Shown here piece by piece: positions 33,639 to 38,732 of a DNA stretch of 53,039 bases. Source of the stretch: Bacteroidales bacterium (GTDB taxonomy: Bacteria > Bacteroidota > Bacteroidia > Bacteroidales > Marinilabiliaceae); assembly GCA_024401335.1 (NCBI GenBank), contig JAKSLH010000020.1, forward strand, positions 1 through 53,039. The letters run 5' to 3'. A program made the position numbers and the translations under genes. How positions within the stretch are numbered: position 1 is the first letter of the stretch; every line of letters begins with the position of its first letter. The notes beneath the pieces are model-generated. The model was not told where the DNA came from, did not search any database, and saw nothing but the letters and a program-made list of their open reading frames with translations.

Positions 33639-34178
33639 ATGAAACGATTTATTGGACTAATTCTTATCGCCGTAGGCGTTGTTGTTCTTCTCAAGAACCT
33701 TGGATATATCAACCTCGATTGGCTTCACTCCATAGAATGGAAGATCTATATCTGGCCTATAGTACTCATCTTTGTTGGTATCAACCTCCTTTCTAGCAAC
33801 AACAGAAAGAACAGACTTGAAACAGTAAAATTGTCAGAGCCTGCCGAAGGAGAAGCAATAAAGATATCTTGCTGTTTAACTGGCAACAGAAGCAGCCTAA
33901 ACGGATCAAGATTTTATGGGGCAAAGATAGAGACATTATGCGGCGGTGCTGAACTCGACTTGCGAGGCGCAATTATCGGACAAGACGTGAAAATAGACAT
34001 AAGCACTCTCATGGGTGGCGTGTCGCTATGGGTTGACAAAGACGTAAACATCCAGGTTTCCAACAGCGGATTTGCTGGAGGAGTAAACAACAAGACATCT
34101 AATAGCACAAACGCCAATTCAAAGACTATTCTCATCAACGCCCAGTGCTATTTCGGAGGTGTCAGCATCCAAAACTAA
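33639..34178 (+). CDS. LiaF-like membrane protein (two TM helices plus beta domain)
   Basis: A 179-residue protein. Two short membrane helices (FIGLILIAVGVVVLLKNLG and IYIWPIVLIFVGINLLS) have the DUF5668-type layout, followed by a beta-helical domain (residues 75-179) with GGAELDLRGAIIGQDVKIDISTLMGGVSLWVDKDV, typical of the LiaF C-terminal (DUF2154) family. LiaF inhibits the LiaRS envelope-stress system in Firmicutes; no LiaRS-like pair is present here, so the role in this organism is unknown. Confidence 0.85.
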   Translation: MKRFIGLILIAVGVVVLLKNLGYINLDWLHSIEWKIYIWPIVLIFVGINLLSSNNRKNRLETVKLSEPAEGEAIKISCCLTGNRSSLNGSRFYGAKIETLCGGAELDLRGAIIGQDVKIDISTLMGGVSLWVDKDVNIQVSNSGFAGGVNNKTSNSTNANSKTILINAQCYFGGVSIQN

Positions 34179-34274: not shown

Positions 34275-34282
34275 TATATTTG
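34275..34282 (+). promoter_or_regulatory. -7 promoter box in front of tsaD and the PqqD cassette
   Basis: TATATTTG, perfect TAnnTTTG, 24 nt before the tsaD ATG. No further promoter box was seen before 38733, so this may serve the whole run tsaD to ABC transporter. Confidence 0.55.
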
Positions 34283-34306
34283 TATGTTTTGCAAAACAGA
34301 CTCAAA

Positions 34307-35320
34307 ATGGGAACAATCATACTCGGCATAGAGAGCTCTTGCGATGATACATCGGCAGCTGTTCTCGATGACGGCAAGGTACTATCCAATGTAATAGCAT
34401 CACAGGCCGTACACATGGCCTATGGCGGTGTCGTACCTGAACTGGCCTCTCGCGCCCACCAACAAAATATCATACCTGTAGTCCATAAGGCTCTTTCCGA
34501 TGCCGGAGTCAGCGTGTCTGATCTATCCGCCATTGCGTTCACTCGCGGTCCGGGACTTATGGGTTCTCTGCTCGTCGGAACATCCTTTGCTAAGGGACTA
34601 GCATTGGCTAGCGACATCAAAATGGTAGATGTCAACCACCTACAGGCTCACGTGTCTGCTCATTTCATCGTCGAAGAGGGCAAAGAACTGCCACAGTTCC
34701 CATTCCTCTGCCTCCTTGTCTCCGGCGGCAATAGTCAGATACTTCTGGTGAAGGACTATATGGACATGGAGATAATCGGACAGACTATTGACGACGCTGC
34801 TGGCGAAGCCTTCGACAAATGCGCTAAGGTTATGGGGCTCGGCTACCCTGGTGGACCAGTAATCGATAAGCTTGCTCAACTTGGCAACCCTGAGGCATTT
34901 GAATTCGCTAAGCCTAACATAAAGGATTACGACTATAGCTTTAGCGGACTGAAAACGTCGTTCCTCTATACTCTTCGCGATAGACTTAAGGAGGATCCTG
35001 ACTTCATCGAAAAGAACAAGGAGGATCTCTGCGCCTCTCTTCAGAAAACTGTCATCGACATCTTAATGAAGAAACTCATCAAAGCTGCTAAGGATCTCAA
35101 GATAACCCACATTGCTCTTGCTGGTGGCGTGTCTGCAAATTCTGGTCTGAGAAAAGCATTCGAGGAACTTCATACAAAACGAGGCTGGACTGTTTTTGTC
35201 CCTAAATTTGCCTTCACCACCGACAACGCTGCTATGGTGGCATCGGCCGGTTATAGAAAATATAACAAGGGCATTTTCTGCGACCAGACAGTAGCCCCTT
35301 ATTCTCGTACCGTCATATAG
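34307..35320 (+). CDS. tsaD: tRNA N6-adenosine threonylcarbamoyltransferase
   Basis: A 338-residue Kae1/TsaD protein. The ATG at 34307 gives MGTIILGIESSCDDTSAAVL, the family start; the TTG upstream lies on the -7 box. Metal-binding histidines appear in VDVNHLQAHVSAHF; the ATP site includes LVSGGNSQILLVKD, DDAAGEAFDKCAKVMGLGYPGGP and ALAGGVSANSGLR. It transfers threonylcarbamoyl from TC-AMP to A37 of ANN-decoding tRNAs, with TsaB and TsaE (not in the window). The next gene starts 9 nt after the stop, an unusual link of an essential tRNA gene to a peptide-maturation-like cassette. Confidence 0.97.
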   Translation: MGTIILGIESSCDDTSAAVLDDGKVLSNVIASQAVHMAYGGVVPELASRAHQQNIIPVVHKALSDAGVSVSDLSAIAFTRGPGLMGSLLVGTSFAKGLALASDIKMVDVNHLQAHVSAHFIVEEGKELPQFPFLCLLVSGGNSQILLVKDYMDMEIIGQTIDDAAGEAFDKCAKVMGLGYPGGPVIDKLAQLGNPEAFEFAKPNIKDYDYSFSGLKTSFLYTLRDRLKEDPDFIEKNKEDLCASLQKTVIDILMKKLIKAAKDLKITHIALAGGVSANSGLRKAFEELHTKRGWTVFVPKFAFTTDNAAMVASAGYRKYNKGIFCDQTVAPYSRTVI

Positions 35321-35329
35321 TCTTTTGCC

Positions 35330-35617
35330 ATGGAGAATACCAGATTTAAAGCCAACGATAACTTTGCTATAAGCGAAGTTGCCGGAGAAACAGTAATCGT
35401 TCCTGTGAGCGACTCAGTCGACACTCTCAACAACCTATTCGTCCTCAACGAGACTGGTGCATTCATAATCAACATGATGAACGAAGGGAAGAATCTAGGA
35501 GAGATCGCCGACGCATTAGTGGCATCCTACGAAATAGATCGCGAGACTGCCCTCAACGACGCATCTGAATATGCAAAGAGAGCTGTCGAACGAGGATTCT
35601 TCACTGTAGAACAGTAA
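35330..35617 (+). CDS. PqqD-family protein (RiPP recognition element-like)
   Basis: A 95-residue winged-helix PqqD fold: three strands (FKANDNFAISEVAGETVIVPVS), then FVLNETGAFIINMMNEGKNLGEIADALVASYEIDRETALNDASEYAKRAVERGFF, with the conserved L-N-x-T/S-A-x-x-I-x-x-x-L-type segment. PqqD proteins bind leader peptides of ribosomally made, modified peptides and present them to the modifying enzyme. Here no radical SAM, cyclase or protease gene is adjacent. It is the first gene of a four-gene run with almost no gaps. Confidence 0.88.
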   Translation: MENTRFKANDNFAISEVAGETVIVPVSDSVDTLNNLFVLNETGAFIINMMNEGKNLGEIADALVASYEIDRETALNDASEYAKRAVERGFFTVEQ

Positions 35618-35631
35618 CAATCTATCCTTTG

Positions 35632-36525
35632 ATGAGTAACTCTCCTGTCATAGTTTCTGTAGCGGGACTAAACATCCGCTATTCTGCGGAACCCCCTTTG
35701 TCTTTCTCCCAAACTGACTATCGAGGCTTCGCAGTTGACAACGCTTGCGACATAACGCTAGACATCAACATTGTCGACTCGCAGGAAACTGGACATGATG
35801 AATCAGATCGTGAGGTGTTCTTTGTGGGCGACTGCCGTGGCACCGAGATGCCTGACCATCGTTGGGAAGTGGGATATACCAAAGATGGTAAGGAATATAT
35901 CGCTGTCGACTTCTTCAACGACTTCCTGCCTCTCAACTGGCTGAAACTTGTGTTCGACGACAAGAACGGCACTCTATACATATCACGTCGCGACAAAGAC
36001 ACGCTTCAGATCGACCCATATATCTACCCACTTAACAACATACTGATATCTCGCCTTCTCCGAAGATATAACTCTTTCCTTATCCATTCTTCTGTAGTTG
36101 ACGATAATGGCAAAGGATATCTTTTCACAGCAGTCTCTGGCACAGGGAAATCTACAATGGCACGCCTGTGGCAAGGAGAGGGAGCGACTATTATCAATGA
36201 TGACATGTTGGCTATTCGCACTGATTCCGGCGAGATAACCGCCAACAACATCCCTATGCCCTACTACAACGACTCATCACGTGGTGTTGCCCTCAAAGGC
36301 ATTTTCCTAATAAGCCAATCAAAAGACGACTACGTCTCTCCTATAAGCGGCGCTAAAGCTACGCTGAAGCTCCTTGCAAATACGATCCACCAGCCGTGTG
36401 ACAAGACATCTGCCATAGATCATCTTAAAAACATTGAGCTAGTGAGCAAAAACGTTCCTATTTATGAGTTGGGATTTAAGATAAGCAACAACATCGTCAA
36501 TATCATCAGACAGTTGAACCTCTGA
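35632..36525 (+). CDS. HPr-kinase-like P-loop protein of peptide-maturation type
   Basis: A 297-residue protein; the ATG at 35632 is preferred over a TTG one codon earlier. The N-terminal half is beta-rich. The second half has the HprK/PEPCK-like kinase core: NSFLIHSSVVDDNGKGYLF, Walker A TAVSGTGKSTMARLW, then IINDDMLAI (Mg-binding acidic pair) and GVALKGIFLISQSKDD. In lasso-peptide and related clusters such HprK-like proteins sit beside PqqD, and some phosphorylate the precursor peptide. The HPr Ser-46 loop residues of true HprK are not recognised. It starts 14 nt after the PqqD gene and ends 6 nt before the S26-like gene. Confidence 0.82.
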   Translation: MSNSPVIVSVAGLNIRYSAEPPLSFSQTDYRGFAVDNACDITLDINIVDSQETGHDESDREVFFVGDCRGTEMPDHRWEVGYTKDGKEYIAVDFFNDFLPLNWLKLVFDDKNGTLYISRRDKDTLQIDPYIYPLNNILISRLLRRYNSFLIHSSVVDDNGKGYLFTAVSGTGKSTMARLWQGEGATIINDDMLAIRTDSGEITANNIPMPYYNDSSRGVALKGIFLISQSKDDYVSPISGAKATLKLLANTIHQPCDKTSAIDHLKNIELVSKNVPIYELGFKISNNIVNIIRQLNL

Positions 36526-36531
36526 CAACAC

Positions 36532-36999
36532 ATGCAACAACGGGACCTAAAAAACATAGTGATTGATTTGCTCCGTAACGGCCATACAGTCAAACTACGT
36601 GCTACCGGATTTAGTATGGTGCCAACTCTTTGGCCATACATGAATCTTATCGCACGACCAGCAGTCTCTTCAGAGCTAAGCTGTGGTGACATTGTTCTCT
36701 TCAACAGTGAAAAAGATGCTCTTATCGCACACCGCATTGTCAAAGTCGGTAACAATAGCATGTTAATCCAAGGAGACTCGTGTATATGCCAAGACGGATG
36801 GATAAATAATGATGAGATAGTCGGCAAAGTAATTGGTGCAGAAGTTTTCGGCATAAAACTCAGCATGACATGGAGTGGATTCAGAATATACACCAGACTC
36901 ATGCTCTCTTCATCTCCAATGTCGCACAAGGCGAACAACATACTCGCGACTGCGATATACAATGCCATAAACCTGAAAAACAAGTTGATAGGCAAATGA
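36532..36999 (+). CDS. S24/S26-type peptidase-like protein, possibly Ser-His type
   Basis: A 155-residue protein with the signal-peptidase-like fold: ATGFSMVPTLWPY contains the catalytic serine motif (S-M-x-P-T-L), CGDIVLFNSEKDALIAHRIVKVGN is the strand-loop where bacterial signal peptidase has Lys but Sec11-type enzymes have His (here AHRIV), and MLIQGDSCICQDGWINNDEIVGKVIG resembles the GD-x-x-x-x-D box. It has no N-terminal membrane anchor, so it may act in the cytoplasm or at the exporter, for instance on a leader peptide. The stop overlaps the ABC start (ATGA). Confidence 0.8.
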   Translation: MQQRDLKNIVIDLLRNGHTVKLRATGFSMVPTLWPYMNLIARPAVSSELSCGDIVLFNSEKDALIAHRIVKVGNNSMLIQGDSCICQDGWINNDEIVGKVIGAEVFGIKLSMTWSGFRIYTRLMLSSSPMSHKANNILATAIYNAINLKNKLIGK

Positions 37000-38732
37000 A
37001 GAAAATAGAAACATATTATCTTTTCCGCACCATGAGACTCATCTGGAGATGTAGTCCCAAATGGTCATTGGCCAATGCATCACTTGTAATAGTCCGAGGT
37101 CTCATTCCATTGGCTCAGTTATGGGCTGTAAAGGTTGTCATAGACATCACATCGACACAGGTAGGTACCGGAGTATTTAATCTATCTGAAGCAGCTTTAG
37201 GACTAGCAATAATGGCAAGCCTGTTCGTCATCAGTTCTGCTACCGATTCATTACATTCTATAGTCAAAGAACGGCACAGCTACCATCTCAGCAATGTCAT
37301 AGCACATATCATACACCACAAAACCACAACTATCGGCTACGGATTCTTTGACGACGCCAATTATCACGACATATTCTTCCGCGCAGTAGCGGAATCAACA
37401 AGCAAACCGCAGGGAGTCTTCTACAATGTGATCAACCTCATACAGAACACCCTCACCATAGGTTCACTGGCTATATTGCTGACGGCTATTCACTGGACGT
37501 TGCCTGTCATTATCTTGGTAATGGGTCTGCCTATTGTCATCGTCAGAGTGATATTCTCTAGGCGATACTTCGCGCTACAACGCGAACAAACAAATGACGA
37601 ACGAAAGGTACAATACTACAACAGAGTGCTTACTGCTCGCGAATTTGCCAAGGAGATAAGAACATTCCATCTCGCAGAGCATTTCAAAAACTTATACTAC
37701 AGCACATTAGCATCACTTCGCCACAAGAGACTCAAACTTATGATAGACGACTCTATCAGAGAGTCAATAGTTCAGTTAATAGCGTCACTACTTTTTGTCG
37801 CAGTCTTCGGCTTTGTGATGTACCGCGCCGTAACGACACAAATGTCTGTCGGCTCTTTGGCCATGTACCTGATGGCTCTACAACGAAGCTACGGCGTAGC
37901 ACAAGACATTCTTGGCCGCATTGCGTCATTATACGACTCCAACCTGTTCCTCAAGAATTTCTATTCATTCATCGACATGAATGATAGCTACAACGGCATC
38001 AGCAACCTTTCATCACCAACAACAGAGCCTGGATACATATCATTTGAAAACGTCTCGTTCAGTTATCCGAACACGACACGAACCGTACTCAGTAACATAT
38101 CATTTAGCATAGAAAAGGGCGACACCATTGCCATAGTAGGACGAAATGGATGCGGCAAAAGCACTATCATAAAACTCATTTGCGGACTTTATAAGCCGAC
38201 ATGCGGACAGGTCAACGTTGGAGGTTCTATATCTGCGATATTCCAGGACTTCATGTTATACAACGCATCTGCTCACGACAACATTCGTTTTGGCAATATA
38301 CATAAAACAGATACTCCACAAGACATCAAACAGGCTGCCCAGAAAGCAGGCGTCGACAAACTGCTGAGCGACCTGCCACATGGCTACGAGACTCAGCTGG
38401 GCACACTGACTGCTGAGAGCGAAATGCTCAGTCAAGGAGAGTGGCAACGCATAGCACTCTCGCGCTCGTTCTATGCCGATAGCGACATAATTGTAATGGA
38501 CGAGCCTACTAGTTCCCTCGACGCATTTACCGAGGCTTCACTCATAGACAACTTCAGAGCTATCACACACGGACGCACTGCTGTCATCGTCAGCCATCGC
38601 ATAGCATCTATCAAAATGGCACAGAAAATCATGGTTGTTGACAATCACCAGATAGCAGAATTCGGCACTTACGACCAACTCATATCACTCAATGGATTAT
38701 TCACTGAAATGGTGAGAAGCCTCGAAAAATAA
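36996..38732 (+). CDS. ABC exporter, fused membrane and ATPase domains
   Basis: A 578-residue half-transporter. The ATG at 36996 overlaps the upstream stop; an open frame further upstream lies inside the S26-like gene. Six membrane segments cover residues 20-310; the ATPase part has Walker A VGRNGCGKSTIIKLI, a signature LSQGEWQRIALSRS (variant of LSGGQ), Walker B DIIVMDEPTSSLD and the switch HR in VSHRIAS. No N-terminal C39 peptidase domain is present. The order PqqD, HprK-like, S26-like, ABC suggests export of a modified peptide; the substrate is unknown. Confidence 0.9.
   Translation: MKKIETYYLFRTMRLIWRCSPKWSLANASLVIVRGLIPLAQLWAVKVVIDITSTQVGTGVFNLSEAALGLAIMASLFVISSATDSLHSIVKERHSYHLSNVIAHIIHHKTTTIGYGFFDDANYHDIFFRAVAESTSKPQGVFYNVINLIQNTLTIGSLAILLTAIHWTLPVIILVMGLPIVIVRVIFSRRYFALQREQTNDERKVQYYNRVLTAREFAKEIRTFHLAEHFKNLYYSTLASLRHKRLKLMIDDSIRESIVQLIASLLFVAVFGFVMYRAVTTQMSVGSLAMYLMALQRSYGVAQDILGRIASLYDSNLFLKNFYSFIDMNDSYNGISNLSSPTTEPGYISFENVSFSYPNTTRTVLSNISFSIEKGDTIAIVGRNGCGKSTIIKLICGLYKPTCGQVNVGGSISAIFQDFMLYNASAHDNIRFGNIHKTDTPQDIKQAAQKAGVDKLLSDLPHGYETQLGTLTAESEMLSQGEWQRIALSRSFYADSDIIVMDEPTSSLDAFTEASLIDNFRAITHGRTAVIVSHRIASIKMAQKIMVVDNHQIAEFGTYDQLISLNGLFTEMVRSLEK

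What the first reader, a model, noticed from the sequence alone, without database searches (positions are those of the whole stretch)
34307..38732. PqqD / HprK-like / S26-like / ABC exporter cassette fused to tsaD: a RiPP-type system without visible precursor
Four genes follow tsaD with gaps of 9, 14, 6 and -4 nt. PqqD domains bind leader peptides, HprK-like kinases occur in lasso-type clusters where some phosphorylate the precursor, an S26-like protease could trim a leader, and the exporter lacks its own C39 peptidase. No cyclase, radical SAM, transglutaminase-type protease or small precursor ORF was found between 34179 and 38850. The precursor may be encoded elsewhere, or the cassette may modify a different target. 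The tie to the essential gene tsaD suggests steady expression.
Basis: partly seen in the sequence, partly recalled or inferred. Interest (0 to 1): 0.75.

Follow-up and report, generated by a model that had tools for sequence, protein, structure and literature searches.

The report
Trans-acting peptide maturation cassette, precursors found
Four genes behind tsaD look like one machine that recognises, phosphorylates, trims and exports small peptides, and likely peptide genes for it were found scattered over the same genome, three of four beside a gene for a protein that looks destined for the cell surface.

Summary
[quoted passage not shown] no precursor lies in the window. Candidate precursors were found elsewhere. 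In 14 related loci of the family (Marinilabiliaceae) a 64-79 aa peptide follows pqqD; a model of these finds four relatives in the window's own genome. They share a leader with YxxP, D and S/T (S/T at Y+20 in 53 of 54) and vary in the C-terminal core. RRE and protease occur in 35 of 37 family genomes, peptides in 34; in a class-wide sample kinase and peptide coincide in 7 genomes. Dispersed peptides sit beside a gene with a type IX secretion (T9SS) sorting domain in 27 of 40 loci (8 of 237 other genes), and in 13 of 19 loci outside the family. The parts match the core of the linear polyphosphorylated peptide (LPP) system reported from Bacillota in 2026, but the NTP-transferase was not found, precursors act in trans, and the T9SS link seems new. 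Binding, phosphorylation, cleavage and export are inferred, not shown.

The parts
34307..35320 (+). tsaD, tRNA threonylcarbamoyltransferase; probable first gene of the transcription unit, not part of the machine
   Evidence: TIGR03723 407 bits; adjacent to pqqD in 26 of 34 family loci
35330..35617 (+). PqqD-type RiPP recognition element (RRE), 95 aa
   Evidence: PF05402 55.7 bits; profile matches lasso RRE 5v1u 2.3e-9 and the LPP RRE LppB 9x8z 5.4e-8
35447..35572 (+). span with the codons of N40, D77 and Y81, aligned without gap to LppB N33, D70, F74 that hold the leader Y and P
   Evidence: alignment; residue roles from PMC13381572 section 8; in the 16 rows of A3: N 16, D 13 (E 2, G 1), F/Y 16
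35632..36525 (+). HprK-like kinase, 297 aa
   Evidence: 22-row alignment with invariant H152, P-loop, N189-D190-D191; AF2 pLDDT 93, PEPCK/HprK fold
36136..36156 (+). Walker A (P-loop) SGTGKST of the kinase
   Evidence: and sequence
36532..36999 (+). SEC11/archaeal-type signal-peptidase-like protease, 155 aa, candidate leader peptidase
   Evidence: TIGR02228 31.6 bits, below cut-off; SEC11C 4.1e-8 by profile; AF2 pLDDT 94.3
36613..36795 (+). span with the codons of S28, H67, D88, invariant in 23 sequences; likely counterparts of LppS S29, H68, D93
   Evidence: LppS residues from PMC13381572 section 11; pairing by motif order, no direct alignment with LppS
36996..38732 (+). MsbA-like ABC exporter without C39 peptidase, 578 aa
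   Evidence: TIGR02203 MsbA best NCBIfam hit, 237.9 bits (below its cut-off 602); PF00005 above cut-off
34275..34283 (+). TATATTTGT, candidate Bacteroidota -7 box upstream of tsaD; weak
   Evidence: pattern scan; consensus TAnnTTTG recalled; no TTG at the -33 spacing

Best explanation
The cassette is an LPP-like RiPP maturation and export machine that works in trans. Small precursors encoded elsewhere (four candidates in this genome) carry a leader KKxYxxPx[I/L]xxxx[L/I]D; the PqqD-type RRE binds the YxxP part (inferred from homology) and presents the peptide to the HprK-like kinase, which phosphorylates a Ser/Thr near the leader-core junction, most likely the near-invariant S/T at Y+20 (inferred). 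The SEC11-type protease cuts the leader off near that point (inferred), and the MsbA-like exporter moves the linear core of about 28-51 residues out of the cytoplasm (inferred). Because most of the dispersed precursors examined are directly beside, and probably co-transcribed with, a gene with a T9SS sorting domain, the mature peptide most likely acts in the envelope together with that cargo (inferred from gene order only).
For: Peptide directly after pqqD in 14 related loci. A model of these 14, none from the window's genus, finds four peptides in the own genome at E 1e-7 to 2e-6. Shared leader, variable core: leader identity 0.363 (shuffled 0.142), core 0.264 (shuffled 0.221), 600 pairs; S/T at Y+20 in 53 of 54 and D at +11 in 52 of 54 (which mends a wrong anchor); outside the family 21 of 21 for both in the set typed (many near-identical), and 5 of 6 S/T and 6 of 6 D in six left out of it. 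Family, 37 genomes: RRE 35, protease 35, peptide 34 (32, partly by construction since its model holds these peptides, plus G002 and G003); 24 other genomes of the order: RRE 4, protease 3, peptide 1. Class sample of 247: kinase at E<=1e-50 in 8, peptide in 9, both in 7, neither in 237 (Fisher 3e-11, 7e-10 without the own genome; relatedness ignored; cut chosen at the gap in the list). RRE keeps the leader-binding residues of LppB. Protease and exporter in one ORF in L028. T9SS domain: 27 of 40 loci versus 8 of 237 other genes; TIGR04183 in 26 of 79 neighbours versus 5 of 75 sampled other genes; 13 of 19 loci outside the family; PorU sortase in the own genome, 995 bits.
Against: No biochemical step was shown. 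No peptide was found in G006, G012, G014, which have the RRE and protease. G027 and G032 have peptides but no RRE match; G027 and G028 no protease match; these are incomplete drafts. In the class sample G151 and G215 have peptides but no kinase hit, G245 the kinase but no peptide; at the looser kinase cut of 1e-10, 9 of 16 kinase genomes have no peptide hit. Six of the strong class-wide genomes belong to one genus. Protease and exporter are found behind the kinase in only 23 and 15 of 34 family loci; some contigs end there, but in others the protease lies elsewhere. 13 of 40 dispersed peptides have no T9SS-domain neighbour by my model. One peptide in L169 has S at +19 and E at +20. The kinase has only a partial sub-threshold Pfam match. 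The S26-ABC fusion is one draft contig and could be an indel.
Confidence: 0.75

Rival explanations
1. The cassette matures only the one cassette-type peptide (ending NPFGG[D/G]xPxY); the peptides beside T9SS cargo genes are paralogues with another, cassette-independent role such as cargo chaperones.
For: A cassette-type peptide sits right after pqqD in 14 loci, and an orphan look-alike exists in four genomes without a peptide in the pqqD-hprK gap (L101, L106, L107, L108); its C-terminus differs from the cargo-linked ones.
Against: Both classes share the same leader block including D+11 and S/T+20, the part expected to meet the RRE and protease. In family f36 the cassette-side peptide (L236) and the cargo-side peptides are near-identical. 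Peptides were not seen in the order genomes without the cassette, except G048 which has one, although most of these have T9SS sorting domains.
Confidence: 0.12
2. Lasso-peptide-like system whose macrolactam cyclase is encoded elsewhere.
For: RRE matches lasso RREs (5v1u 2.3e-9); YxxPx[I/L] leader; HprK-like kinases occur in paeninodin clusters (PMC13381572 section 6).
Against: No cyclase or B2 protease among the five genes, nor seen by eye in 12 neighbourhoods; the protease is SEC11-type. The own genome was not searched for a cyclase.
Confidence: 0.06
3. The four genes serve something other than the peptides (for example maturation of another exported protein), and peptide and cassette co-occur only through common descent.
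For: Co-occurrence inside one family can be shared ancestry; no activity shown.
Against: The pairing recurs in other families of the class and in a Chlorobiota record; peptides are inside the cassette in many loci; YxxP is the known RRE ligand and its binding residues are kept.
Confidence: 0.07

Closest known systems
Linear polyphosphorylated peptides (LPP) of Bacillota, Popov et al. 2026, PMC13381572
   Same: Discrete RRE, HprK-like kinase, archaeal-type signal-peptidase-like protease and MsbA-like exporter; YxxP leader; no cyclase; RRE residues N33/D70/F74 have counterparts.
   Different: Bacteroidota, while the paper calls LPP restricted to Bacillota; precursors dispersed and acting in trans; no PF14907 match in the own genome; leader lacks the HQxIxFET block; T9SS-domain neighbours instead of capsule loci; family-wide inheritance instead of patchy spread.
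Paeninodin-type phosphorylated lasso peptides
   Same: RRE and HprK-like kinase; phosphorylated peptide expected.
   Different: No cyclase and no cysteine B2 protease in the cassette; Y, not W, in the leader motif.
PCAT exporters (C39-ABC)
   Same: Peptidase coupled to an ABC exporter; in L028 the protease is fused N-terminally to the exporter.
   Different: Protease is a SEC11-type serine fold, not a C39 cysteine protease; leader has the RRE motif, not double glycine.
HprK/P and NCBIfam ScmC, HprK-related kinases A and B
   Same: P-loop kinase domain.
   Different: Hits are far below the equivalog cut-offs.

Membership tests
LPP (PMC13381572) | discrete RRE | tested here: met
   PF05402 55.7 bits; LppB 9x8z 5.4e-8
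LPP (PMC13381572) | HprK-like kinase | tested here: met
   alignment, fold and sub-threshold TIGR04249/04352 hits; activity untested
LPP (PMC13381572) | archaeal-type signal peptidase I-like protease with Ser-His-Asp | tested here: met
   SEC11C match 4.1e-8; S28, H67, D88 invariant in 23 rows
LPP (PMC13381572) | MsbA-like transporter | tested here: met
   TIGR02203 best hit, below its cut-off
LPP (PMC13381572) | NTP-transferase (I took PF14907 as its model; the paper's own model was not checked) | tested here: not met
   0 matches in the own genome, 84.6% complete; present beside hprK in L169 and L176
LPP (PMC13381572) | precursor with YxxPxVLxHQxIxFETxxS consensus in the cluster | tested here: not met
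   candidate precursors have YxxPx[I/L]...D..I.L...S/T and none is in the window
LPP (PMC13381572) | polyphosphorylated Ser in a linear product | not testable with these tools
   needs mass spectrometry
LPP (PMC13381572) | RRE in the LPP clade of the tree | not tested
   no tree was built
Lasso peptide cluster | macrolactam cyclase and B2 protease in the cluster | tested here: not met
   none among the five genes; whole genome not searched for them
PCAT | C39 peptidase domain on the exporter | tested here: not met

The most novel reading that the evidence does not exclude
Some Bacteroidota with a type IX secretion system carry a housekeeping, chromosomally inherited RiPP-type pathway in which one cassette phosphorylates, trims and exports a whole set of small peptides, each encoded next to and made together with its own T9SS cargo protein: a dedicated peptide-partner system for surface proteins, unlike any RiPP role that I know of.
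Probability: 0.5. Interest if true: 0.92.

Novelty: new variant of a known kind. Interest (0 to 1): 0.8.

Why it matters
It turns an orphan cassette into a testable pathway with named candidate substrates. RiPP machines are usually looked for by precursors inside the cluster; here one cassette seems to serve dispersed precursors, which cluster-based mining would miss. It extends an LPP-type system beyond Bacillota and links such peptides, for the first time as far as my searches go, to T9SS cargo genes, a concrete lead on what phosphorylated RiPPs do.

Tried and rejected
Rejected: precursor hidden in the window (none). Rejected as main reading: lasso peptide (no cyclase in the cassette) and strict LPP membership (NTP-transferase and consensus leader not met). 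The tsaD tie as a functional link: unneeded, since five loci of the same genus lack it. Pfam and NCBIfam scans of the 54 peptides gave no useful family (Pfam none; NCBIfam one stray hit at 0.0083). Foldseek for the protease gave no match at E<=0.001, so I rely on profile matches too. A paper search joining PqqD, HPr kinase, Bacteroides and precursor peptide found none. Promoter scan: one -7-like box before tsaD, no -33 partner. One search failed on a library attribute after its first result and was rerun. Searches anchored one peptide (L054) on the wrong Tyr; one search mends this (S/T+20 from 52 to 53, D+11 from 51 to 52 of 54; L038 would add a D if anchored on its second Tyr). Left out of the typed outside-family set: three peptides in L169, three tandem copies in L242; L258 gave no ORF by my pattern.
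Full report
What is there. The window (contig C13 of a 2.7 Mb, 84.6% complete genome) carries tsaD, pqqD, an hprK-like gene, an S26-like gene and an ABC exporter gene on the + strand with gaps of 9, 14, 6 and -4 nt. PqqD and the exporter ATPase pass Pfam cut-offs; the kinase and protease do not. Both were checked further. The kinase alignment (22 rows) keeps H152, the P-loop S-G-x-G-K-[S/T]-T and N-D-D; its model (pLDDT 93) matches PEP carboxykinase and HPr kinase structures at E 1e-6 to 1e-5, with low TM-scores. The protease alignment (23 rows) keeps G-x-S-M-x-P, H-R, G-D and D; its model (pLDDT 94.3) and profile have SEC11 signal peptidases as best matches, by structure only at E 1.5e-3, by profile at 4.1e-8. 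In the LPP system LppS uses S29, H68 and D93; S28, H67 and D88 here are the likely counterparts, by motif order.

Conservation. A PqqD homologue was found in 39 of 61 genomes searched, 35 of 37 in the window's family and 4 of 24 elsewhere in the order. I fetched 38 neighbourhoods. In the 34 of them from the family, tsaD is adjacent in 26 by script (27 counting L027), hprK follows in 32, the protease in 23 and the exporter in 15; several contigs end inside the cassette. The protease was found in 35 of 37 family genomes and 3 of 24 others; where it is not beside hprK it can lie elsewhere, for example in G015, G018, G021 and G036. The kinase and exporter were not searched genome-wide in the relatives. 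The named records place the family as Marinilabiliaceae, with herbivore-gut MAGs in the window's genus; that G014 is L155, G004 L156, G005 L157 and G036 L160 (Marinilabilia salmonicolor) is my inference from equal contig lengths.

The precursors. In 14 family loci a small ORF (64-79 aa) follows pqqD, where the window has a gap of 14 nt. Aligned, these peptides share K, Y-x-x-P-x-[I/L] and D, and in most a C-terminal P-F-G-G-x-x-P-x-Y. A model of the 14 gave 77 rows in 35 of 61 genomes at E<=1 (rows counted by hand), four of them in the own genome, none of whose genus was in the model: C3:77285, C2:20303, C1:194282, C23:208411 (E 1e-7 to 2e-6). Of the 63 rows that were not seeds I fetched the context of 40. 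A model of 54 peptides (these 40 and the 14) then hit 33 of 61 genomes at E<=0.01: 32 of 37 in the family, partly by construction, and G048, which has its own cassette (L028). A genus-specific model added G002 and G003, a peptide at the same place between the same neighbour genes in both (E 0.001-0.004; the neighbours look like smpB and rlmH by eye); G006, G012 and G014 stayed without. In the 54 peptides Y and P are invariant because the motif was the anchor; S/T at +20 is kept in 53 and D at +11 in 52. Outside the family both are kept in 21 of 21 peptides typed, many of them near-identical, and in 5 of 6 (S/T) and 6 of 6 (D) that I had left out. The leader block is more alike than the core (0.363 against 0.142 shuffled; core 0.264 against 0.221), and P-[F/L/Y] occurs in the last 18 residues of 45 of 54 cores against 0.247 in shuffled cores. 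The peptides matched no Pfam family, and NCBIfam gave one stray hit.

Independent test. In 247 genomes drawn evenly from the class, kinase hits at E<=1e-50 occur in 8, peptide hits (model trained in the family only) in 9, both in 7 and neither in 237 (Fisher 3e-11, or 7e-10 without the own genome). The cut of 1e-50 was chosen after seeing the list, which has a gap down to 3e-27; at 1e-10 there are 16 kinase genomes, 7 with peptides (p 4e-8). Relatedness is ignored: six of these genomes are of one genus, g58; the strong kinase hits and the peptide hits fall in the same five genera. Against the pairing: G245 has the kinase without a peptide, G151 and G215 peptides without a kinase hit. The 80 best named kinase loci (a capped list) also contain cassettes in Bacillota and one in an Atopobiaceae record (kinase, RRE and protease together in 36 of the 65 loci L170-L234) and peptides with the same kind of leader in Crocinitomicaceae, Flavobacteriales and Chlorobiota records (L167, L168, L169, L176).

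Link to type IX secretion. Of the 40 dispersed peptides, 27 have an immediate neighbour with a T9SS C-terminal domain by a model made from 15 own-genome TIGR04183 matches; 8 of 237 other genes in the same loci do. Three of the 15 seed domains come from own-genome neighbours of the peptides; without the own genome it is 24 of 36. With the official model, 26 of 79 neighbours and 5 of 75 sampled other genes (of 237) match TIGR04183 (p 4e-5). In the own genome, with 25 TIGR04183 matches, three of four peptides have one of these genes as immediate neighbour. Outside the family, 13 of 19 loci examined have such a neighbour, in all 13 directly upstream on the same strand (22 rows, the other three being tandem copies seen inside L242). 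The own genome has the PorU-type sortase. The sorting domain is present in 59 of 61 genomes searched, so T9SS does not need the peptides; the link runs from peptide to cargo.

How it most likely works. Shown by sequence: the parts, their co-occurrence, the shared leader, the kept leader-binding residues. The RRE profile aligns to LppB (PDB 9x8z) so that window N40, D77 and Y81 fall on LppB N33, D70 and F74, which hold the leader Pro and Tyr; the chain numbering is shifted by 18 against the paper, which I matched through N33, C39, D70 and F74. Inferred: binding of YxxP, phosphorylation at S/T+20, leader cleavage near there by the SEC11-like protease, export of a linear core. LPP gives the precedent: LppK puts several phosphates on S3 of the core, and in a cell-free assay LppS cut the leader only with LppB present. 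In L028 the protease domain is fused to the N-terminus of the exporter (PF00717 25.5 bits, cut-off 23.3, and PF00005), the place that C39 has in PCAT exporters (recalled), which suggests cleavage coupled to export; it is a single draft contig. The role beside T9SS cargo is inference from gene order.

Known or new. The closest system is LPP (PMC13381572; I saw abstract, sections 6, 8, 11, 12 and passages). Four of its core features are met, the NTP-transferase and the leader consensus are not, so I do not file it as LPP, but as an LPP-like variant. PMC10352776 on RiPPs of Bacteroidales was seen in passages only; HprK does not occur in its main text. PMC12710340 and PMC7470986 hold none of the terms kinase, HPr, S24 or Bacteroid-. 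Searches joining T9SS with PqqD or RRE found no paper and one hot-spring paper (listing only).

Noticed in passing
L028 1716-3956: S24/S26-like protease fused to the N-terminus of an ABC exporter in one 746-aa ORF; single draft contig.
   Followed up: partly
L169 and L176: pqqD-hprK followed by a PF14907 NTP-transferase, with peptide, a large protein with T9SS-like C-terminus and protease on the other strand: an LPP-like cluster with a cargo gene inside.
   Followed up: partly
L242 1262-1722: Four tandem mini-peptides (about 25-38 aa as called) with near-identical leaders and almost no core, near pqqD of G247.
   Followed up: no
L090 and L094: Peptide plus T9SS-domain gene shortly upstream of an rpsL-like gene in two species of the genus.
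   Followed up: no
L093, L112, L117, L119: Orphan peptides of the genus next to a metallo-beta-lactamase-fold hydrolase gene (Pfam only for L093, the others by eye; NCBIfam hydrolase hits among the neighbours).
   Followed up: no
L037 9859-18865: pqqD, peptide, then a very large secreted protein gene and no kinase nearby; the protease lies about 30 kb away (G015:C10:118002).
   Followed up: no
L171-L234: Kinase-RRE-protease(-exporter) cassettes are common in rumen and gut Clostridia; their precursors were not sought beyond the peptide model, which gave no hit there.
   Followed up: no
window 33639-34178: LiaF-like small membrane protein gene directly upstream of tsaD.
   Followed up: no
G055:C102:132509-133985: Protease hit about 1 kb from a weak peptide hit (E 0.05) in another family of the order, perhaps a further divergent copy of the system.
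   Followed up: no
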